In this document: positions 14,997-52,673 of the stretch, piece after piece
Position numbering within the stretch: the stretch's first letter is position 1
Layout: each line of letters starts with the position of its first letter
Assembly (NCBI RefSeq): GCF_030295405.1
Contig: NZ_AP027080.1
Span: forward strand, 4,857,001 to 4,921,000
Source of the DNA: Mesoterricola silvestris
GTDB taxonomy: Bacteria > Acidobacteriota > Holophagae > Holophagales > Holophagaceae
Reading direction: 5' to 3'
Length of the DNA stretch: 64,000 bases
Notes under the pieces: generated by a model
Seen by the model: the letters and a program-made list of their open reading frames with translations, nothing else
Told to the model about the DNA's origin: nothing
Databases searched by the model: none
Position numbers and translations under genes: made by a program

Positions 14997-15095
14997 GCAG
15001 CGAAAAGAAGACTTTTGAGTCATCATTTCTTCAAGTTTCCCCCCCACCCAATTGGCCACGCTGTTTCAGCCCGGCCTATACAAAGGAGAACACGA

Positions 15096-15983
15096 ATGAA
15101 GAAGCTCACTCTCGCCGCCCTGGGACTCGTGGCTCTCGCCGCCGTTCCCGTTTCCGCCGCCACCTGGAGCGATACGTTCCTCGGCTACCGCACCGGCCCC
15201 GCCTTCCGCGAACCCGGCTACGCGTCCGGAATCCAGAAGCAGATCCTCTCCCTCAACTACGTGGGCGGCAACACCCTCGGCAGCAATTTCTTCAACGTGG
15301 ACATGCTGAAGTCCGACAGCAACGATCCCATCAACAACACGGCCCCCGCGCCGGCCAAGGGCGCCCAGGAAGTCTACGTCGCCTACCGCAACAACCTCAG
15401 CCTCAGCGCCGTCTTCGGCAAGAAGATGGAGGCCGGCATCATCCGCGACGTGGAATGGACCACCGGGTTCGACTACAACGCCAAGAACACCGAATTCGCC
15501 CCCTCCGTCTACAAGCTCATGACCGGCCCCACGCTCTCCTTCAAGGTCCCCGGCTTCCTCACCCTGGGCGTGCAGTACTACAAGGAATGGAACCACAACT
15601 CCTTCGGCGGCTTCAACGGCGGCAACAACAACGTGGTGTTCGACGCCACCTACCAGATCAACGCCGCCTGGGGCATCAACGCCCCCATCGGCCCCGTCGC
15701 CGGCAAGTTCAAGGGCTTCGCGGCCATCACCGGCGCCAAGGGCAAGGACGGCTCCACGGTCGACACCAAGATCGAAACCCTGATCGACGCCTATTGGATG
15801 GCCGACTTCAGCGGCCTGCTCGGCGCCAAGAAGGGCACCTGGCAGATCGGCCCCGGCGTCGAATTCTGGAACAACAAGTTCGGCGATCCCACCTTCGCCA
15901 CCACCCAGGACGTCAACATCCCCCACGCCGTGGTCAACCCCCGCACCCTCACCGGGATGATCGCCCTGGAATACCACTTCTAG
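15096..15983 (+). CDS. tsx: Nucleoside-specific channel-forming protein, Tsx-like outer-membrane porin
   Basis: 295 residues. A clear signal peptide (MKKLTLAALGLVALAAVPVS-AA) is followed by the family opening TWSDTFLGYRTGPAFREPG and the NFFNVDMLKSDSNDP stretch typical of Tsx. The C-terminus ends in LEYHF with terminal Phe, as expected for an outer-membrane beta-barrel. It should admit nucleosides or nucleobases across the outer membrane, complementing the NCS2 permease just upstream. AAAGGAG precedes the ATG at 15096. A terminator-like hairpin follows the stop. Confidence 0.88.
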   Translation: MKKLTLAALGLVALAAVPVSAATWSDTFLGYRTGPAFREPGYASGIQKQILSLNYVGGNTLGSNFFNVDMLKSDSNDPINNTAPAPAKGAQEVYVAYRNNLSLSAVFGKKMEAGIIRDVEWTTGFDYNAKNTEFAPSVYKLMTGPTLSFKVPGFLTLGVQYYKEWNHNSFGGFNGGNNNVVFDATYQINAAWGINAPIGPVAGKFKGFAAITGAKGKDGSTVDTKIETLIDAYWMADFSGLLGAKKGTWQIGPGVEFWNNKFGDPTFATTQDVNIPHAVVNPRTLTGMIALEYHF

Positions 15984-23896: not shown

Positions 23897-25108
23897 ATGG
23901 ACGAGCGTTCGCCCCATCTGTTCCGGGCCCAGGCGCTGGAGCACCACCTGGGCGGCGAGGAGGGCCGGGGGCTGATCCGGGTGTCCCCGCCCTGGAGCTG
24001 GGCCCTGCTGCTGGTGTTCCTTTCGGCCTTCGGTACCGCGCTGCTGGCCGCCTTCCTGGGGCGGGTGGAGGTGAACGGCCGGGCCCGGGCCATCCTGCGT
24101 CCCCGCACGGGCATCCGGGTGGTCATCGCCAAGGTGGACGGCACCGTCGGCCAGGTGGAGGCGCGCTCGGGCCAGCAGGTCCGGGCGGGCACGGTGCTGG
24201 CGCGGCTGGAGGCGCCTCCGGTGCAGGCCCAGCTGCTGGAAGCCCGCCGCCAGGTGGAGGCGGTCCACCTTCACTTCCGGGCCACGGCCGCCCGCCAGGA
24301 CCAGGGCTATGCCGAACAGGTGCGAAGACTGACCGGGCGCATGGCCGGCCTCGGGGAGCAGCGCCGGAGCCAGCGCCAGTCCGTGGCGGCCCTGGAACTT
24401 AACCTCAAGCGCTGCCTCATTCTGGAAGGGGAGGGCATCCTGAGCCCCGCCCGGGCCGACGAGGCCCGGGAGGCCCTTGCCCAGGCCCAGCGCCAGCTCA
24501 GCCAGTCGGACCAGGCCCTGGAGCTGGCCTCCCAGGAGCGGGCCGCGCTGGAAAACAGCCGCCAGGACAACCTCTGGCAGCGCCGGCAGACCATCCAAAA
24601 TGCGGAGGTGCGGGCGGAGGCGCTGGGCTTCCTGCTGGGCCAGACCCGGCTGGAGGCCCCGGAGGACGGCCAGGTGGAGGCGATGCTGGTGAAGCCCGGC
24701 GAAGGGGTCCGGGCCGGCCAGGCCCTGTGCAAGCTCATTCCCCGGGGCGCCCCGCTGGAAGTGGTCGCCTTCCTGCCCGAGAAGGACCGGGCCTTCGTGC
24801 GCCCGGGAGACGAGGTGCGCCTCGAGCTGGACCAGCTGCCCTACGCGGAATACGGCACCCTCCGGGGCCGGGTGGAGCGCATCAGCGAGGACCTGGCGTC
24901 GGGCTTCGAGATCCAGGAGGCCCTGGGCGACACGACCTTCCCCGGCCTCCCGGTCTTCCGGGTGGAGGTGCGGCTCACCGACACCCAGGCCGTGCTCCGG
25001 GCCGGGGTTCCCTTGCGTTCGGGCATGCTGATGAACGCCCGCTTCACCCTGCGGAGGCAGCGGCCCATCACGCTGGTGCTGGATCCCCTGCGCAAGTGGC
25101 TGCGCTGA
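23897..25108 (+). CDS. HlyD-family periplasmic adaptor of a peptide exporter
   Basis: 403 residues. One membrane helix (about residues 33-56) follows a short cytoplasmic head. Then come a lipoyl/barrel-sandwich half, a long coiled-coil hairpin rich in Arg, Gln and Ala (about residues 110-245), the second lipoyl half (LEAPEDGQVEAMLVKPGEGV) and a beta-barrel domain. Such adaptors connect a C39-peptidase ABC transporter to the outer membrane. Its stop overlaps the start of the transporter (TGATG). No TolC gene is adjacent. Confidence 0.88.
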   Translation: MDERSPHLFRAQALEHHLGGEEGRGLIRVSPPWSWALLLVFLSAFGTALLAAFLGRVEVNGRARAILRPRTGIRVVIAKVDGTVGQVEARSGQQVRAGTVLARLEAPPVQAQLLEARRQVEAVHLHFRATAARQDQGYAEQVRRLTGRMAGLGEQRRSQRQSVAALELNLKRCLILEGEGILSPARADEAREALAQAQRQLSQSDQALELASQERAALENSRQDNLWQRRQTIQNAEVRAEALGFLLGQTRLEAPEDGQVEAMLVKPGEGVRAGQALCKLIPRGAPLEVVAFLPEKDRAFVRPGDEVRLELDQLPYAEYGTLRGRVERISEDLASGFEIQEALGDTTFPGLPVFRVEVRLTDTQAVLRAGVPLRSGMLMNARFTLRRQRPITLVLDPLRKWLR

Positions 25109-27261
25109 TGGGCGGGCGCCCGTGGCTCCGGAAGCGGGTGGACTTCATCGCCCAGATGGAGGCCACCGAATGCGGAGCGGCCGCCCTGGCCATGGTCCTG
25201 GCCCACCACGGCCACCACGCCCCCCTGGCGGAGGTGCGCCAGGCCTGCGGCATTTCCCGGGACGGCGCCAGCGCCCTGGCCCTGGTGAAGGCCGCCCACG
25301 CCTTCGGCCTGGAGGCGGAGGGCGTCCGGCTGGAGGTGGAGGATCTGTTCCGCCTTCCTCTCCCGGCCATCCTCCACTGGGACTTCGATCATTTCGTCGT
25401 GCTGGAGCGGGTGGGAAGGACCGGCGCCACCCTGGTGGACCCGGCCCACGGGCGGCGCCGGGTGGACCGGCTGGAACTGGGGCGCAGCTTCACGGGCGCC
25501 GCCCTCCTGTTCCGCCCCACGCCGGCCCTGGCCCCCCGGGCCCGGATGCGCCCCAGCCTGGCGAAGTACCGGGAGGTCTTCCGGCGCAACCTGCCCAGCC
25601 TCACCCAGATTCTCCTGGCCACCCTGGTCCTGGAAGCGGTGGGCCTGGCCACGCCGGTGGCCAGCCAGCTGCTCCTGGACCGGGTCCTGGTGCCCCGGCA
25701 GGCGCCCTGGCTCTGGGGCCTGGCCCTGGGCCTGGGCTCGGCGGCCATCACCGCCGCCGCCCTGGGCCTGGTGCGCGGCTGGGTGGCCCTGAACCTGCAC
25801 CTGGAACTGAACTTCGCGCTCACGGGCAGGTTCCTCGGCCACATGCTCCGCCTGCCCCTGGGCTTCTTCCTCCAGCGGGATCCCGGCGACCTGGCGCAGC
25901 GGGCCGGGAGCAGCGCCGAGGTGCAGGACCTGCTCAGCACCGGCGCGGTGAACGCCCTCCTGGACGGGTTCCTGCTCCTGGGCTTCGCCGCCCTGATGAT
26001 CGCCTATCACCCCAGGCTGGCGGGGCTGGTCCTCGCCCTCAGCCTGGTGCACGCGGCCCTCCTGGGCGCCCTGTGGGACCGCAACCGCCAGTTGGCCGCT
26101 TCCGGGCGGGCCGCGGCGGGGCGGGAGGGGGCGGCCCTGCTGGAGGCCCTGTCCGGCCTGGAGGCCACCAAGGCCAGCGGCGCGGAAGGGCACATGGTGC
26201 GCCGCTGGGCCAACAGGATGACCGAGCGCGTGAACCTGGGCCTGGAGGCCCAGGGCCTCACCCGGGGCCTGGGCGCGGCCCTGGGCTTGTTCCAGGGCCT
26301 GGCCGGCCTCCTGGTCTTCGGGGTGGGGGGCCGGGAGGTGCTGGCGCACCGCATGACCCTGGGCACCTTCGTGGCCTTCCTGACCCTCCAGGGCCTGTTC
26401 ATGGCGCCCCTGGGCTCGCTCCTGGCCGCCCTCCTCCAGCTCCAGTCCCTGGGCACCCACCTGAGGCGCCTGGACGACGTGCTGGAAACCGCCGGGGAAC
26501 CCCGGGGCTCCGCGGATCCCGGCCGGCTCGGCGGGGCCGTGGAGCTGCGGGACGTGACCTTCCGGTACGCCCCCGGGGGCGCGCCCGCGCTGGACGGCCT
26601 CAACGTGCGCATCGCGCCGGGGGAGACCGTGGCCCTGGTGGGGCCGACGGGCGCCGGAAAGTCCACCCTGGCGCGGCTCTTCCTCGGCCTCCACCTTCCG
26701 GACCGGGGCACCGTGCGCTTCGATGGCCGGGATCTGCGGGAGCTGGACCTGGGCGCCGTGCGCCGCCAGATCGGCGTGGTGATGCAGGAGACCTTCCTGT
26801 TCGACGACACGGTGCGGGCGAACCTGGCCCTCCACGACGGGGACCTGTCCCAGGAGCGGCTCCTGTGGGCGGCCCGCATGGCCTGCGTGGACGATGTGAT
26901 CGCCGCCCTGCCCCGGGGTTTCGACAGCCGGGTGGGCGAGAACGGCAGCCTGCTTTCCGGGGGCCAGCGCCAGCGGCTGAGCCTCGCCCGGGCCCTGGCC
27001 CACGATCCGGCCATCCTCGTCCTGGACGAGGCCACCAGTTCGCTGGACCCGGGCACCGAGGCCCGGATCCAGGCCAACCTCGCCCGCCTGGGCTGCACCC
27101 GGATCCTCATCGCCCACCGCCTGGCCACCCTGCGGGACGCGGACCGGATCCTGGTGCTCCAGGGCGCACGGATCGTCCAGGAAGGCCCCTTCGGGGAGCT
27201 CCAGGCCGCTCCGGGCCTCTTCCGGGACCTGCTCGCGGCCGCGGAGCCGGGCCGTGGCTGA
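25108..27261 (+). CDS. Peptidase-containing ABC transporter (C39 leader peptidase) for double-glycine peptides
   Basis: 717 residues. An N-terminal C39 peptidase domain has its full catalytic set: Q16, C22 (QMEATECGAAALAMV), H95 (WDFDHFVVL) and D111 (LVDPAHG). A six-helix exporter domain spans about residues 155-450, followed by an ATPase with Walker A GPTGAGKST (512-520), signature LLSGGQRQRL and Walker B ILVLDEATSSLD. The protein should cleave leaders after Gly-Gly and export the core peptide. It resembles the first ABC component of NHLM/NHLP-type bacteriocin systems. A double-glycine leader peptide occurs at 50.5 kb. Its ATG overlaps the hlyD-type stop. Confidence 0.93.
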   Translation: MGGRPWLRKRVDFIAQMEATECGAAALAMVLAHHGHHAPLAEVRQACGISRDGASALALVKAAHAFGLEAEGVRLEVEDLFRLPLPAILHWDFDHFVVLERVGRTGATLVDPAHGRRRVDRLELGRSFTGAALLFRPTPALAPRARMRPSLAKYREVFRRNLPSLTQILLATLVLEAVGLATPVASQLLLDRVLVPRQAPWLWGLALGLGSAAITAAALGLVRGWVALNLHLELNFALTGRFLGHMLRLPLGFFLQRDPGDLAQRAGSSAEVQDLLSTGAVNALLDGFLLLGFAALMIAYHPRLAGLVLALSLVHAALLGALWDRNRQLAASGRAAAGREGAALLEALSGLEATKASGAEGHMVRRWANRMTERVNLGLEAQGLTRGLGAALGLFQGLAGLLVFGVGGREVLAHRMTLGTFVAFLTLQGLFMAPLGSLLAALLQLQSLGTHLRRLDDVLETAGEPRGSADPGRLGGAVELRDVTFRYAPGGAPALDGLNVRIAPGETVALVGPTGAGKSTLARLFLGLHLPDRGTVRFDGRDLRELDLGAVRRQIGVVMQETFLFDDTVRANLALHDGDLSQERLLWAARMACVDDVIAALPRGFDSRVGENGSLLSGGQRQRLSLARALAHDPAILVLDEATSSLDPGTEARIQANLARLGCTRILIAHRLATLRDADRILVLQGARIVQEGPFGELQAAPGLFRDLLAAAEPGRG

Positions 27262-29212
27262 ACCGGCCCCCCTCGCCGGGTTTCCCCCCGAGGAGGCCCT
27301 GGGGCGCCTCCTGGCGCGCCTTGGCCACGAGGGCGGCCGCCAGGCTTTCCGGGATGGCCTGGACCCCGGACCCGACCGCATGATCGAGGCGCTGGAGGAC
27401 CGGGGCCTCCAGGGCCGCGCCGCGCGGCTGGACAGCCGGGACCTCGCCTACCTGGAGCGGCCCACCCTGGTGGAGCTGCGGGAGGGCACCTGGGTTCTCC
27501 TCCTGGACGGGCCCTCTGGGTCCTTTTCGGTGGAAACGCCCGGGGGCGTCCGGACCCTGGACCCGGAGGCCCTGGCGGAACGCATCTCCGGAAGGGCCCT
27601 GGACCTTTCCCCCGCCCTGCCCCCCGGCGCCACCCTCTGGGCCCGCCTGAAACCCCTGTTCCTGCGCCAGCCCAGGAGCCTGCTCCAGCTGGGGGCGGCC
27701 CTGCTGATGCTCCAGGCCCTGGCCCTGGTCCTCCCCGCCACCACCGCCCTCATCCTGGACCGGGCCCTGCCGGACGGGGCCAGCTCCCTCCTGGCCCTGG
27801 GGGTGGCCGGGATGTTCCTGGCCACGGTGCACCAGGTGTGGATCGGCTGGATCCAGGAACGGGTGGTGCTGTTCTTTTCGACCCGGCTGGCCGTTTCCGC
27901 GGAACGCGGGTTCCTGGAGCACGCCCTGCGCTGCCCCTTCCCCTTCCTGCAGTCCCGCACCCTGGGCGACCTCCTGCAGGCCTTCGGCGGTTTCGCCGCG
28001 GCCCGGGACCTGCTCCCCGCCCGGACGGTAGGGGTATTCCTCAGCGGGGCCATGGGCTTCTTGTACCTGCTGGCGATGTTCGCCCTGCTTCCGGGCGCCT
28101 CCCTGGTGATCCTCCTGGTGACCGCCCTCCTGGCGCTCCCCACCCTCGCCCTGGGCCGCGTGCAGGCACGGCTTCAGGCCCGCCAGGTGGAAGCGGCGGC
28201 CCGGGAGCACGGCCTCCTCATCGAACTGGTGACCGGCATCGCCACACTCAAGGGCTCCGGCACGGAGGCCAGGGCCCTGGACCGGTGGCGGGGGCGGCGT
28301 CGCGCCGTCCTGGGCCTGGAGCTGACCCGGAGCCGCCTGAACCTCGCCTCGGACCTGGTCCTGGGCCTGGTCAGCCAGGCCCTGGCCATCGGCCTGTTCA
28401 TCCACGGCGGCCTGCGCCTCCTGGAGGGTTCCCTGAAGCCCGGAACCCTCTTCGCCTTCCTCCAGCTGAGCAGCGGGTTCACCAGCTCCTTCCTGGCCGT
28501 GGTGCACACCGCCCTCACCCTCCTGATCCTGAAGCCCCAGCTGGCCAAGGCCCAGGAGATCCTCTCCCGGGAACCCGACCCGCGGCCCCGCCGGGACTCC
28601 CCCACCCCGGGCCCGGTGCCCGCCGTGCTGGAGGACGTGGGGTTCCGGTACACCCCCTCGTCCCCCTGGGTGCTCCAGGGCTACGACCTGCGGGTGGATC
28701 CCGGGGAGAAGGCCACCCTCGCCGGTCCCTCCGGCTTCGGCAAGACGACGGTCCTGCGGCTGCTGGCCGGTCTCCACGTGCCCGAGCGGGGCCGGGTCCG
28801 GGTGGCGGGCCGGGATCCCCGGGAGGTGCGCCACGACCTGGTCTACCTCCCCCAATTCGTCCGGATCTTCGGTGGCTCCATCCTGGAGAACCTGCGCATC
28901 TACGCCTGCGGCGCGCCCCTGGAGCGGCTCATGGAAGCCGCCGGCCCCACCGGCCTCCAGGCCCTGGTGGACACCCTGCCCATGGGCTACCGGACCCTCC
29001 TCCCCCCCGGCGGAAGGAACCTGTCCGGCGGCCAGCGCCAGCTCATCGCCCTCACCGGCGCCCTGGCGTCCGGACGACCGCTCCTGCTGCTGGACGAGGC
29101 CCTGGCCAACCTGGACGCCGCCCACGCCGCCCCCCTGCGAACCCTCCTGGCCCAGGGACCCTGGACCCTGGTGTCGGCGAACCCCGGGGAACCCGGCGGG
29201 ACGTTCCGGTGA
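27254..29212 (+). CDS. Second ABC transporter of the peptide-export cassette, partly degenerate
   Basis: 652 residues from a GTG overlapping the previous stop by 8 bases. The first 130 residues have a peptidase-like or accessory fold without the catalytic Cys. Then follow an exporter membrane domain and an ATPase with Walker [10 protein letters not shown], signature [12 protein letters not shown] and Walker [13 protein letters not shown]. The usual H-loop histidine is absent: the region reads [12 protein letters not shown], and the protein ends shortly after it. This matches the second ABC protein of NHLM-like systems in layout. The missing histidine suggests one weak ATP site in a heterodimer with the C39 transporter. 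Confidence 0.8.
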
Positions 29213-48196: not shown

Positions 48197-49172
48197 CAAG
48201 AGGGTCTACGACAGCATCCTCGACGTCATCGGCAACACCCCCCTGGTGCGCCTGCGCCGGATCACCGCCGGCATCCCCTTCCCCGTGTGGGTCAAGCTCG
48301 AGTACCTGAACCCCATGGGCAGCAGCAAGGACCGCATCGCCAAGTACCTGGTGGAGCAGGCCGAGAAGGACGGCCGCCTCCACCCCGGCGACGTGATCCT
48401 GGAGAACTCCTCGGGCAACACCGCCATGGGCCTCGCCCTCGCCGCCATCCAGAAGGGCTACACCCTCAAGGCCGTGGTGCGGGACCGCACCAGCAAGGAG
48501 AAGCTGGACCAGCTCACGGCCCTGGGCGTGGACCTGGTGAAGGTCGACACCAGCCTCCCCCCGGACCACCCCGACAGCTACAACCTCATCACCCCGCGCC
48601 TCGCCCGGGAGACCCCCGACTGCTACTTCCCCGACCAGCACAACAACCGCGAGAACAACGAGGCCCACTACCGGGGCACCGGCCCCGAGGTGTGGGAGCA
48701 GATGGACGGGAAGATCGATGTCTTCGTGGCCGGCATGGGCACCGGCGGCACCATCGGCGGCGTGGGCCGCTACCTGAAGGAGCGCAACCCCGCCGTGAAG
48801 ATCGTGGCCGTGGACGTGGTGGGTTCGGTCTTCACCCCCTACTTCCGCACCGGCGACCCCGGCAAGGCCGCCCCCTACCTCCTGGAGGGCCTGGGCGACG
48901 AGTTCCTCATCGGCTGCGCCGATTTCTCCGTCATCGACGAAATGGTCCAGGTGACGGACAAGGAAGCCTTCCTGGCCGCTCGCGAGCTGGCCCGCACCGA
49001 AGGCCTCCTGGTGGGCGGCTCCAGCGGCGCCGTCATCCACGCCCTGAAGAAGATCGCCCCCACCCTCCCCCCCGACGCCCGGGTGGCGATCCTGTTCCCC
49101 GACAGCGCGTCCCGGTACCTGAGCACGATCTTCAACGACGACTGGATGCGGGAAAAGGGAATGCTGGATTAG
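48189..49172 (+). CDS. Cysteine synthase/cystathionine beta-synthase-like PLP enzyme
   Basis: 327 residues. PLP lysine K47 in NPMGSSKDRIA, substrate loop ENSSGNTAMGLA and phosphate-binding GTGGTIGGVGRYL are all intact. It has no C-terminal CBS domains. It likely makes cysteine or cystathionine from an activated serine. The short loop after K47 is closer to the cystathionine beta-synthase/CysM group than to CysK. It shares the operon with ridA. Its stop overlaps the stop of the opposing SDR gene. Confidence 0.88.
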   Translation: MRDKRVYDSILDVIGNTPLVRLRRITAGIPFPVWVKLEYLNPMGSSKDRIAKYLVEQAEKDGRLHPGDVILENSSGNTAMGLALAAIQKGYTLKAVVRDRTSKEKLDQLTALGVDLVKVDTSLPPDHPDSYNLITPRLARETPDCYFPDQHNNRENNEAHYRGTGPEVWEQMDGKIDVFVAGMGTGGTIGGVGRYLKERNPAVKIVAVDVVGSVFTPYFRTGDPGKAAPYLLEGLGDEFLIGCADFSVIDEMVQVTDKEAFLAARELARTEGLLVGGSSGAVIHALKKIAPTLPPDARVAILFPDSASRYLSTIFNDDWMREKGMLD

Positions 49173-49870
49173 GGATCGGCAAGGTGCGCCTCCCGGAATG
49201 GGTCCAAGGGAAAGCAGTCGACCTCGTCCACCCGCATCCGGGGTGGCAGGGCCACCAGATTGCAGACCAGGGACGTGACCTCCCCCAAGGGAAGGCGGGA
49301 CCGGTCACCCGGTCCGGCCTCGCCTTCGGCCTGGAAGGACCCCAGGTTCACGTAGGTGATGGTGCCCTGCCTCCGGGCGATCTCCTTGGCCACGTGGCGG
49401 CACATTTCCCGCAGGGAACCTTTGAAGAATCCGTATAGGCCATGACGCCCCGTCAGCGTTCGTGGATCCGCGGCCACGGATCCCATAAGGATGATCCGGC
49501 CCCCCTCCTCCCCGAAGGCCTCGGCGGCGCTCCTTACCAGGCGAAGCGTGTTTCCAAGGAAGGTGAGGCAGCTTTCCAGGTCCGTTTCTGGAGCGATGAG
49601 CAGCGAGCCCGGGCCGTAATACGAAGCACAGTGCACCACGGCAGCCAGCGGCTTAAGCCGGCAGACCAGGCCCTTGAGAACGGGGGTAGGCAGCGCTTTC
49701 GAAAAATCGAGCCCCTCGATGGAGGCGCTGTCCAGCCCAGGGAAGACCGCGTGGACCCGGGCCGGATCCCGTCCGCTCAAAATGGGGTGATAGGACGGAT
49801 CCTGGATCAGCCTTTCAGCCACCGCCCGGCCCAGAGTGCGATTTGCCCCGGTCACCAGGACCCTGGTCAT
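49169..49870 (-). CDS. Short-chain dehydrogenase/reductase
   Basis: 233 residues. The cofactor loop TGANRTLG is near the start. S131 (ILMGSVAA), Y146 and K150 (GLYGFFK) form the SDR catalytic set. The start was set at the ATG directly before TRVLVTGANR. A longer frame would add about 110 residues that reach into inverted repeat C. Substrate unknown. It is convergent with the cysteine-synthase gene with overlapping stop codons. Confidence 0.85.
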   Translation of the reverse strand: MTRVLVTGANRTLGRAVAERLIQDPSYHPILSGRDPARVHAVFPGLDSASIEGLDFSKALPTPVLKGLVCRLKPLAAVVHCASYYGPGSLLIAPETDLESCLTFLGNTLRLVRSAAEAFGEEGGRIILMGSVAADPRTLTGRHGLYGFFKGSLREMCRHVAKEIARRQGTITYVNLGSFQAEGEAGPGDRSRLPLGEVTSLVCNLVALPPRMRVDEVDCFPLDPFREAHLADP

Positions 49871-50507
49871 GGCGAAACCCGGGGGGCTCCCTGTAAGGAA
49901 AATGGAGCAGAGCGCTTTTGGATCATGGGAGGGCGTCCTTTCCCGGGGAAGGCTCGACTGGGGGTTGGATGCAACTGACGCTTGTTGGTCTGAGTTGTTC
50001 AGGAGAGGCAGCAATGGACCGGCCACCGTCCCCGGTGGCCTGGTAGTGGGCAATGCAGGGGATAGGTTTCCATGCGGAATCGCCACATCCCTACTTCGCT
50101 TTGCATTCTTCTTTTCCCAGCGCCCCAGACTCGACGCAGTGCGTCTCGTCCTCTGCGCCCCAGCGGTTGATTCTTTTCTGGGTTCCCTCGGCGCGATTGT
50201 AACCATCGCGCCGCGAATGCCAGGAAAAGATCAAACGCTGGGGCGCAGAGGACGAGACGCACTGCGTCGAGTCTGGGGCGCTGGGAAAAGCAAAACTGAA
50301 TGCTGCCCGAAGGGTTCCTAGGCATTCCGCCGAGCAAGGCAATGTGCGGTAGGTGAACGCGCGGATGCGGCGGGCGGCCGATAATTTGAGATTTTTTACC
50401 AGAGGAAACCCCTTCCTCCCCTTCCGGCATTCAAGGTTGGCCGAGACAGGGCGCGGTGCCAAACGTGCCCCCGTCCTGGCTACGCCCCCTTTTGGAAAGG
50501 AGATGCC
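49871..50507. other. 637-base divergent intergenic region before the double-glycine peptide gene
   Basis: It lies between the starts of the SDR gene (leftward) and the leader-peptide gene (rightward). It holds inverted repeat C (50104-50304) and then about 200 bases without a recognisable gene. No clear -35/-10 pair was seen. The AT-rich stretch ATAATTTGAGATTTTTTACC near 50380-50400 is the most promoter-like part. Confidence 0.45.
50104..50304. repeat. Long hairpin repeat C with perfect 55-base arms
   Basis: Arms 50111-50165 and 50236-50290 are exact reverse complements. The 70 bases between them fold further (GGCGCGAT with ATCGCGCC around 7 bases, and CTTTTCTGG with CCAGGAAAAG), so nearly the whole 200 bases forms one rod. 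The fact that the arms match perfectly points to recent origin, or to selection or gene conversion keeping them identical. There is no transposase and no similarity to repeats A, B or D. Confidence 0.85.
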
Positions 50508-50831
50508 ATGAAGATGTGTCCCTACCTCCTCCCCCACCTGGACGACACGTCCCTCGAGGCGGTCACCGGCGGCATGTTCCCCCGGGTAGCGCGGATGGTG
50601 TTCACCCATACCGAGAAGCTGAACCCTGGCGCCGGCGCAGACGCCTATCTCATGCCGGGCGGCATCCGCGACCACGAGCGAGCCTGTGCCCAGGCCCGGT
50701 TCGACGCGCTCGTCAAACAGAACCCCGGCCTATTCGCACCACCCGACCCGAACTACAGCGTGAATCTCCTGCAACAACGACTGGCCAACGGCTATGGCAA
50801 GCCGCACCTCGTGCGGGGTGGAAATCCCTAG
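50508..50831 (+). CDS. Double-glycine leader peptide precursor (secreted peptide/RiPP-like candidate)
   Basis: 107 residues, well-placed GGAAAGGAG ribosome site. The first 22 residues form a textbook double-glycine leader ending LDDTSLEAVTGG: hydrophobic L11 (-12), L16 (-7) and V19 (-4), then G21-G22. Cleavage by a C39 peptidase would release an 85-residue core beginning MFPRVARM, with one Cys, three His and an estimated net charge of about +4. The core has a second Gly-Gly (LMPGG) and ends VRGGNP. I recognise no family for the core. A C39 transporter with intact active site is encoded at 25.1-27.3 kb. The next gene starts 9 bases later. Confidence 0.75.
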   Translation: MKMCPYLLPHLDDTSLEAVTGGMFPRVARMVFTHTEKLNPGAGADAYLMPGGIRDHERACAQARFDALVKQNPGLFAPPDPNYSVNLLQQRLANGYGKPHLVRGGNP

Positions 50832-50840
50832 CGGGTTGGA

Positions 50841-52673
50841 ATGCACCAGGTCCCGACCGTGCGAAGGTTCCTTTCGATCGCTGCCTGCTGTCTCCTGGTC
50901 CTTCCCACGGCCTGCGGCCCCGGGCCCGGAATCGTCGCTGGTCACGTCCTGGACCCCGATGGAAAGCCTGAGGCGGAGGCCACCGTGGCGGTCATCCCGA
51001 TCGATCCCCTCAAACCATGGGGGGAAATCGAGAAGGTGATCTGGCGAAGGACGGATCGGCGGGGCCGGTTTCGCATCAAGGTGCGGCCCGGCTCGCACGC
51101 CGTCGCGGTGAGCCATCCCTGGTGCACCGGACCCGAGGTGTGCCGGGTTTCCGTGGATGCCGGATCCACCTGCGCCCTGCCCTTTCCCCTCCGGCTCCGG
51201 CGCGGCGAAGCCTGGGTGCAGGGGGAGATCCGGGACGGGGAAGGGCGGCCCGTTCACGGCCTCCTCGGCCTCCTGCCGCCCCTCCAGGATCCGCGTTTGA
51301 ACGCCACCTCGGTGCGCCTGGCCCCCATCCTTTCCGGGCGCTACCGCATCGCGGTGCCCCCCGGGACCTACTTCTTCTTTCCCTGGGCCAAGGGATGGTT
51401 CCTCCCGGGCCGCTGGGTGGACGTCGGGCCCGGAACCCGGATCCAGGACGCCGTCCTCCTGCCGGAACCCGTGAAGGCCGGGCGGGCGACCTTGCGGTGG
51501 CTCCGGGCCCGGGCGGTGAACCTGGACCCCGCGGAACCCGGCAGCCTGGAGCCGCTGGCGGGGGCGCTCCGCCCCGGCACCGTGCTGGCCCTGGGGGAAA
51601 TGACCCATGGATCCGATGAGTTCCGGCAGCTCCTCCACCGGGTGGTCCAACAATGGGCGGCCCGGGGCGAAACCGGGGCCATTGCCCTGGAGATGCCCAT
51701 CGCCAATGGGTTCCCGGTGGACGCCTACGTCCAGGGCCGGGGTCCGGAGCCCCGGGAGGCGCTTCCCCTGGCCTACCGCACCGGGGAGATCCGGGAATTC
51801 CTCCGGTGGCTGCGGCGCTTCAACGAAGGCCGGGGGCCCCGCTCCCGCTTCCGGATCCACGGCATCGACATGGCGGATCCGGGTTCCGCCTACCGCCACG
51901 CCGCCGCCTTCTACCGGCGGCACGACCCCGACGCGGCAGCGATCCTCCACAAGGACCTGGCGGACCTGGGCGGAGCCGGGGAGCTCACCTTCCCCGGGGA
52001 TGCGGCCCGGGCCCGGCGCTGGCGGGCCGCGCTGGAACGCCTCCGCCGGCGCCTGGACGCGCCGGGATCACCCCCGGCCGCGAACCCCCGGACCCTCGCG
52101 GACCAGCATCGGGTGCTGGTGGCCCTGGAGCAGTTCATCCCCCTGGCCCTGGACCGGACCCAGGGGTCCCGGGCCCGGGAACAGGCCATGGCCGAAAATG
52201 TCCGCTGGGTCCTGGGGGAGGATGGCCCGGGCGGGCGGGTGCTTCTTTTCGCCCACGGCGGCCATGTGGCCCGGACCCTCCGGGATCCCATGGGCTGGCC
52301 CACCCTGGGCTGGCACCTGGGCAAGGAGCTTGGCGAGGCTTACATTCCGGTGGGCCTGACCTTCCACCGGGGAGGGTTCCTGGCCCTGGAAAGCTCCCGG
52401 GCCCATCCCGCCTGGCTTCCCTTCGAGGTGGGGCCCGAGGCGCGCGCGACCCTGAACGAAGCGCTCGCGAGCCTCCACCGCCCCTGCCTCCTCCTGGACC
52501 TCCGGACCGCGCCGGCCGATCCCTGGCTGCGGTCCCCCCAGGGCCTGCGCTCCATCCCCCTGGACTTCGACCCCGCCGCGCCGGAGCTCTACCTCCTGCC
52601 GGCCTTCGCAAAGGAGGAATGGGATGCCCTCCTCCAGTTGGAGCGCATCACCCCGTCCACTCCCTGGCCCTGA
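50841..52673 (+). CDS. Erythromycin-esterase-family lipoprotein with N-terminal beta-sandwich domain
   Basis: 610 residues. A lipoprotein signal with lipobox LPTAC (C25) predicts membrane anchoring. Residues 33-100 form a carboxypeptidase-regulatory-like domain (GHVLDPDGKPEAEATVAVIP). From about residue 225 it is an erythromycin-esterase/EreA-like hydrolase with E253 and H256 in LGEMTHGSDEF and further histidines at 472 and 475 (FAHGGHV). Members include macrolide esterases and many hydrolases of unknown substrate. It lies 9 bases after the leader-peptide gene, so it may act on, or protect from, that peptide; this is inference. It ends 7 bases from a convergent gene. Confidence 0.82.
   Translation: MHQVPTVRRFLSIAACCLLVLPTACGPGPGIVAGHVLDPDGKPEAEATVAVIPIDPLKPWGEIEKVIWRRTDRRGRFRIKVRPGSHAVAVSHPWCTGPEVCRVSVDAGSTCALPFPLRLRRGEAWVQGEIRDGEGRPVHGLLGLLPPLQDPRLNATSVRLAPILSGRYRIAVPPGTYFFFPWAKGWFLPGRWVDVGPGTRIQDAVLLPEPVKAGRATLRWLRARAVNLDPAEPGSLEPLAGALRPGTVLALGEMTHGSDEFRQLLHRVVQQWAARGETGAIALEMPIANGFPVDAYVQGRGPEPREALPLAYRTGEIREFLRWLRRFNEGRGPRSRFRIHGIDMADPGSAYRHAAAFYRRHDPDAAAILHKDLADLGGAGELTFPGDAARARRWRAALERLRRRLDAPGSPPAANPRTLADQHRVLVALEQFIPLALDRTQGSRAREQAMAENVRWVLGEDGPGGRVLLFAHGGHVARTLRDPMGWPTLGWHLGKELGEAYIPVGLTFHRGGFLALESSRAHPAWLPFEVGPEARATLNEALASLHRPCLLLDLRTAPADPWLRSPQGLRSIPLDFDPAAPELYLLPAFAKEEWDALLQLERITPSTPWP

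What the first reader, a model, noticed from the sequence alone, without database searches (positions are those of the whole stretch)
50508..52673. Double-glycine leader peptide gene coupled to an erythromycin-esterase-like lipoprotein
The 107-residue product has a textbook Gly-Gly leader (L11, L16, V19, G21-G22) and an 85-residue core I cannot place in any bacteriocin family. Nine bases downstream lies a membrane lipoprotein with an intact EreA-type hydrolase motif. A secreted peptide paired with an esterase-fold lipoprotein could be a new peptide toxin with immunity, a modified RiPP with its maturation enzyme, or a secreted signal. The pairing seems unusual to me; no known two-gene system comes to mind.
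Basis: partly seen in the sequence, partly recalled or inferred. Interest (0 to 1): 0.82.

Follow-up and report, generated by a model that had tools for sequence, protein, structure and literature searches.

The report
Exported peptide and its envelope hydrolase
In one small genus of soil bacteria, a gene for a small exported peptide always sits next to a gene for an envelope hydrolase, and the two diverge together much faster than their neighbours, as expected of a secreted peptide kept with its own protection or shut-off enzyme; what the peptide does is unproven.

Summary
ORF 50508-50831(+) encodes 107 aa with a canonical double-glycine leader (22 aa, ending VTGG). Nine bases on, 50841-52673(+) encodes a Sec-exported erythromycin-esterase-family (PF05139) protein with its catalytic Glu/His residues intact.

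I found the pair four times in three of six genomes of the genus: three at one syntenic site, one elsewhere. All four peptides keep the leader plus a new, cysteine-poor, cationic core (75-85 aa). All four are followed by an esterase of one clade (support 100/100). Esterases outside the clade whose upstream DNA could be read lack such a peptide. Both genes are 52-60% identical between species, while flanking genes are 88-99%; dS is about 3-8 times higher (partly codon bias). Purifying selection on the peptide (dN/dS 0.12-0.26) supports a real gene.

A peptide exporter with an intact C39 peptidase lies at 23897-29212; the ortholog of its C39 gene is the only one found in the complete genome with two pairs.

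Best reading: a class-II-microcin-like or signalling peptide, exported unmodified, with an envelope hydrolase of the Ere/TIKI/TraB/PrgY superfamily that protects the producer or shuts the peptide off. Export and pairing are well supported; action on the peptide is inference.

The parts
50497..50502 (+). Ribosome-binding site (AAGGAG) of the peptide gene
   Evidence: read in sequence; strong purine-rich sites also precede the G070 copies
50508..50573 (+). Codons 1-22: double-glycine leader MKMCPYLLPHLDDTSLEAVTGG
   Evidence: invariant D12, L16, G21, G22 in four homologues
50574..50831 (+). Codons 23-107 plus stop: cationic 85-aa core (calculated 9299.5 Da, pI 9.7), conserved NP(G/A)..(A/G)PPDPN..V......RLA.GYG.P block
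   Evidence: no family or PDB match
50841..52673 (+). Sec-exported, probably lipid-anchored protein: signal sequence with invariant Cys25, CarboxypepD_reg domain (aa 32-113), erythromycin-esterase domain (aa 280-601 in Pfam); E253, H256, E284, H472 match EreC E47, H50, E78, H289
23897..25108 (+). HlyD-type membrane fusion protein of the candidate exporter
   Evidence: related to TIGR03794 and TIGR01843, below their cut-offs
25108..27261 (+). ABC transporter with N-terminal C39 peptidase (ECG, DHF, DPAHG catalytic motifs present); candidate exporter and leader peptidase
   Evidence: C39 E=1.7e-36; TIGR03796-related, 655 bits, below the 853 cut-off
27254..29212 (+). Second ABC transporter of the exporter trio (TIGR03797-related)

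Best explanation
A two-gene cassette. The first gene makes a peptide whose 22-residue leader is cut after Gly-Gly by a C39-containing ABC transporter, releasing a cationic, probably unmodified core of 75-85 residues outside the cell. The second gene, which has no clear ribosome-binding site and is probably translated by coupling to the first, makes a hydrolase that goes by the Sec route to the envelope, probably as a lipoprotein. The hydrolase belongs to the Ere/TIKI superfamily, whose members cut ester or peptide bonds. I propose that it faces the exported peptide and inactivates it on the producer, as immunity if the peptide is an antimicrobial (class-II-microcin-like) or as shut-off if it is a signal, the way PrgY/TraB is thought to shut off an enterococcal pheromone. 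Shown by sequence: leader, pairing, intact catalytic residues, co-divergence, exporter present. Inferred: cleavage, export, lipid anchoring, and above all that the peptide is the enzyme's substrate.
For: Leader beyond chance and kept in 4/4 homologues. All 4 peptide copies found are followed by an esterase and all 4 esterases of that clade by a peptide, at two genomic sites. Relatives outside the clade with readable upstream DNA lack the peptide. Both genes diverge together (52-60% identity to the window's, dS 0.84-2.13) between flanks of 88-99% identity with dS mostly 0.16-0.29, while dN/dS of the peptide is 0.12-0.26: as seen in exchanged toxin/immunity or peptide/receptor alleles. The site lacks the pair in G066. 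In G070 (complete, two pairs) the only C39 gene found is the ortholog of the window's. The second C39 exporter of this genome sits with its own NHLP precursor and LanM, leaving the window's exporter without a local precursor. Catalytic residues intact. PrgY, a TIKI-like membrane peptidase, is thought to degrade its host's own exported pheromone, and Ere and TIKI enzymes share the active site.
Against: No direct evidence that the enzyme touches the peptide. Ere-type enzymes without a peptide partner are widespread, so the enzyme could have its own substrate. Known class II microcin immunity proteins are 51-216 aa and tend to be inner-membrane proteins (PMC9746304), unlike this 610-aa protein. 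The core is conserved at its C-terminus and hydrophilic, unlike many bacteriocins. The exporter trio also occurs in sister genomes without the pair and is 21 kb away, so it is not dedicated. Only four copies in one genus are known. Codon bias (GC3 0.97 in cysK against 0.82/0.87 in the pair) exaggerates the dS contrast.
Confidence: 0.42

Rival explanations
1. The peptide is an exported matrix or biofilm protein or a community signal, like the GG-motif small secreted proteins of Synechococcus elongatus, and the esterase merely shares its operon, acting on an unrelated ester in the envelope.
For: GG-motif small proteins with biofilm roles are known (PMC4997328, abstract). The core is hydrophilic and conserved under purifying selection. 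Full-length relatives of the enzyme exist without the peptide.
Against: Strict pairing at two genomic sites and joint divergence of both genes argue for a direct functional tie.
Confidence: 0.25
2. Class-II-microcin-like antimicrobial whose downstream enzyme is not immunity but an attack or uptake partner, or modifies a target on the cell's own surface so that the peptide no longer binds.
For: Precursor length (97-107 aa), leader and exporter types match those listed for class II microcins; patchy presence and allele-like divergence.
Against: No antimicrobial evidence; the immunity partner is of an unknown type.
Confidence: 0.15
3. RiPP: the esterase-fold enzyme matures the peptide, for example by forming or opening an ester after export.
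For: An erythromycin-esterase homologue occurs in a graspetide locus with a GG precursor and C39 peptidase (PMC8939145).
Against: Sec signal places the enzyme outside the cytoplasm; no ATP-grasp, radical SAM or LanM gene next to the pair at the sites read; no conserved Cys in the core.
Confidence: 0.1
4. Not a GG-peptide: an ordinary small cytoplasmic or regulatory protein whose N-terminus resembles a leader by chance.
For: The core is more conserved than the leader.
Against: Chance 0.07-0.24% per peptide, yet present in four of four diverged copies with the same spacing.
Confidence: 0.08

Closest known systems
Class II microcins (MccV type; C39 transporter, membrane fusion protein, TolC)
   Same: 97-107 aa precursor (known range 75-120), GG leader, unmodified-looking core, adjacent partner gene, C39 exporter and HlyD protein in the genome
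   Different: No sequence relation detected; partner is a 610-aa secreted hydrolase instead of a small inner-membrane immunity protein; exporter unlinked by 21 kb; no activity known
TIKI/TraB/PrgY peptide shut-off proteases (pCF10, pAD1)
   Same: Superfamily reported to share its active site with erythromycin esterases; membrane-anchored; PrgY is thought to act on the host's own exported peptide
   Different: This enzyme matches PF05139 itself; the enterococcal pheromones are cut from lipoprotein signal peptides (own knowledge), not GG-leader peptides
Erythromycin esterase family (EreA-D; Bcr135/136, PDB 2QGM, 2RAD/3B55)
   Same: Fold family by sequence and the catalytic Glu, His, Glu, His
   Different: Extra N-terminal CarboxypepD_reg domain and Sec signal; scores of 38 and 28 bits against resistance-enzyme cut-offs of 800 and 750
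Graspetide loci with an erythromycin-esterase homologue (cluster 575, PMC8939145)
   Same: GG precursor, C39 peptidase and Ere homologue in the same genome
   Different: No ATP-grasp enzyme beside this pair; peptides not shown to be related
NHLP/NHLM lanthipeptide export systems
   Same: Exporter trio has the same architecture (HlyD, C39-ABC, ABC)
   Different: Scores below the NHLM cut-offs; the peptide has no NHLP leader

Membership tests
GG-leader peptide exported by a C39 transporter | Hydrophobic residues at -12, -7, -4 and Gly-Gly at the end of a short N-terminal leader | tested here: met
   4/4 homologues
GG-leader peptide exported by a C39 transporter | C39-containing ABC transporter in the genome | tested here: met
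   catalytic motifs visible
GG-leader peptide exported by a C39 transporter | Leader actually cleaved and core exported | not testable with these tools
   needs mass spectrometry
Class II microcin | Precursor of 75-120 aa with GG/GA signal | tested here: met
   97-107 aa
Class II microcin | Cognate immunity protein of 51-216 aa, usually inner-membrane, nearby | tested here: not met
   partner is a 610-aa Sec-exported hydrolase
Class II microcin | Antibacterial activity | not testable with these tools
   no assay
Erythromycin esterase family PF05139 | Score over the curated Pfam cut-off | tested here: met
   142.6 bits against 26.4
Erythromycin esterase family PF05139 | Catalytic E47, H50, E78, H289 (EreC numbering) | tested here: met
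   E253, H256, E284, H472 invariant in four homologues and aligned to EreC and to 2QGM/2RAD
Macrolide resistance Ere enzyme (EreB/EreD) | NCBIfam equivalog/exception cut-off | tested here: not met
   38.3 of 800 and 28.3 of 750 bits
TIKI/TraB/PrgY protease | Match to the TraB/TIKI family itself | tested here: not met
   Pfam gives PF05139, no TraB family match; the link is at superfamily level from the literature
Lipoprotein | Canonical lipobox before an N-terminal Cys | tested here: inconclusive
   Cys25 invariant, but canonical lipobox in only 2 of 4
NHLP precursor | NHLP/Nif11-type leader (TIGR03793) | tested here: not met
   no match for any of the four peptides
Graspetide | Adjacent ATP-grasp ligase | tested here: not met
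   neighbours at the sites read are cysteine synthase, an SDR protein, a phosphoesterase-like protein and TauE

The most novel reading that the evidence does not exclude
A previously undescribed peptide/hydrolase system in which an envelope-anchored enzyme of the erythromycin-esterase fold specifically destroys its own co-encoded GG-leader peptide: enzymatic self-immunity or signal shut-off outside the cytoplasm, a Gram-negative counterpart of PrgY/TraB.
Probability: 0.28. Interest if true: 0.75.

Novelty: new variant of a known kind. Interest (0 to 1): 0.5.

Why it matters
If right, it gives a substrate and a role to a branch of the large, mostly unassigned erythromycin-esterase family, and shows a secreted peptide protected or switched off by an envelope hydrolase instead of a small membrane immunity protein. 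It would also be an example of a microcin-like or signalling peptide in Acidobacteriota, where I know of few (own knowledge; not searched systematically).

Tried and rejected
Relatives outside the genus: a genome-contig scan with the single peptide found none; with the four-peptide alignment it found only UBA692, which I take to be G067 because contig length and sequence agree. Sampling of 396 phylum genomes gave one weak extra hit (G214, E=6e-4), rejected because it lies out of frame inside a CPBP-type protease gene. Viral contigs, PHROGs, plasmids and PDB: nothing for the peptide; one weak ComC hit (E=0.05) for one member is not relied on. Structure prediction: peptide pLDDT 52 (helices about 53-71 and 83-93), esterase pLDDT 36; too poor for fold searches, so none were run. 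I looked for GG precursors beside the C39 transporters of relatives: none convincing (the first regex had the wrong spacing and was corrected). Two of the pair-negative sister genomes (G068, G069) are incomplete, so absence there is weak; the G069 esterase on C228 begins at a contig edge, so its upstream side cannot be read.

Full report
Check of the observation. The ORF 50508-50831(+) encodes 107 residues, starts behind AAGGAG, and has a leader of 22 residues ending VTGG with hydrophobic residues at -12, -7 and -4. The strict pattern appears in 0.07-0.24% of shuffled versions of the four peptides and in 1 of 303 six-frame ORFs of the window. The downstream ORF 50841-52673(+) begins 9 bases after the peptide stop. 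It carries a signal sequence with Cys25, a CarboxypepD_reg domain (PF13620, E=1e-8) and an erythromycin-esterase domain (PF05139, E=3e-41).

Relatives. In 77 genomes of the family, convincing peptide homologues occur only in the same genus: one in this genome, one in G067 (which I take to be UBA692) and two in G070. Each is directly followed by an esterase. The four peptides share 28 invariant positions. These include D12, L16, G21-G22-M23 in or at the leader, and in the core PPDPN, RLA, GYG and P99. Cores are 75-85 residues, net charge +4, pI 9.7-10.4, with no conserved cysteine and no membrane-spanning stretch. The four esterases keep E253, H256, E284 and H472, which align with E47, H50, E78 and H289 of EreC. 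They form one branch with support 100/100 in a 16-row tree. Esterases outside that branch, about 33% identical or less to the window's over their full length, have no GG peptide upstream where the upstream side could be read.

Site and evolution. In G000, G067 and G070 one pair lies between a cysteine synthase gene and a phosphoesterase-like/TauE block. The extra pair of G070 lies elsewhere. The G066 genome, 100% complete, has the flanks but an insertion-sequence-like gene and a different gene between them, and no pair. Flanking proteins are 88-99% identical between the three species, the window's pair 52-60% identical to the others. Synonymous divergence is 0.84-2.13 in the pair against mostly 0.16-0.29 nearby, and dN/dS of the peptide is 0.12-0.26. 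The peptide is therefore a real gene under purifying selection, and the pair looks as if its alleles separated earlier than the species, or were exchanged as a unit. Codon bias makes part of this contrast. A few other genes of the collinear window are also poorly conserved (for example about 60% at 15036-15980), but with ordinary dS (0.30), so low identity alone is not unique to the pair.

Export. The window contains HlyD, C39-ABC and ABC genes at 23897-29212. The genome's other C39 transporter sits in a LanM cluster with an NHLP precursor. In G070, whose genome is complete, the only C39 gene found is the 80% identical ortholog of the window's. By elimination it is the likely exporter of both its peptides. 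The trio is also present in sister genomes without the pair, and sits at a different place in G070, so it is not dedicated to this peptide.

Mechanism. The leader sends the peptide out through a C39 exporter; the Sec signal sends the enzyme to the envelope. The two can meet only outside the cytoplasm. The enzyme family cuts ester bonds, and the wider superfamily includes peptidases (PMC6254334), among them TIKI-like PrgY, which is thought to degrade the pheromone exported by its own host (PMC7117660). I therefore favour protection or shut-off. This last step is inference. The esterase genes have no obvious ribosome-binding site, which suggests translational coupling.

Comparison and verdict. 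Precursor length, leader and exporter type match class II microcins (PMC9746304), but the immunity-protein criterion fails and no activity is known, so the peptide works like one at most. Graspetide loci offer the nearest published co-occurrence of GG precursor, C39 peptidase and Ere homologue (PMC8939145). The peptide family is new to Pfam, NCBIfam, PHROGs and the PDB. The organism is probably a Mesoterricola species. That is inference from genome size and G+C (window 69.5%) beside published genomes of 4.76-5.18 Mb and 68.3-68.6% (PMC13064192).

Noticed in passing
L054:1947-9276 (G000:C1 about 153.9-161.3 kb): A LanM class II lanthipeptide cluster with an NHLP precursor (94 aa, leader ending ELEVMGA) and its own NHLM-type C39 transporter; outside the window.
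   Followed up: partly
window 23897-29212: NHLM-like exporter trio without a recognisable local precursor, inserted here relative to G070, where the flanking genes are adjacent and the trio lies elsewhere.
   Followed up: partly
L081:5816-11822 (G066): The C39-ABC gene of one NHLM-like trio is split by about 3.9 kb of extra DNA, probably an insertion.
   Followed up: no
L096:3082-7586 (G066): The site between cysteine synthase and the phosphoesterase-like gene, which holds the pair in three genomes, holds a transposase-like gene and a 729-aa protein instead: a variable spot.
   Followed up: partly
window 49169-50206: A short-chain dehydrogenase-like gene just upstream of the pair is absent from the same site in G067 and G070.
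   Followed up: no
window 15036-15980: Gene only 60% identical to its G070 counterpart but with ordinary dS (0.30) and dN/dS near 1.1: possibly fast protein evolution or a frame error.
   Followed up: no
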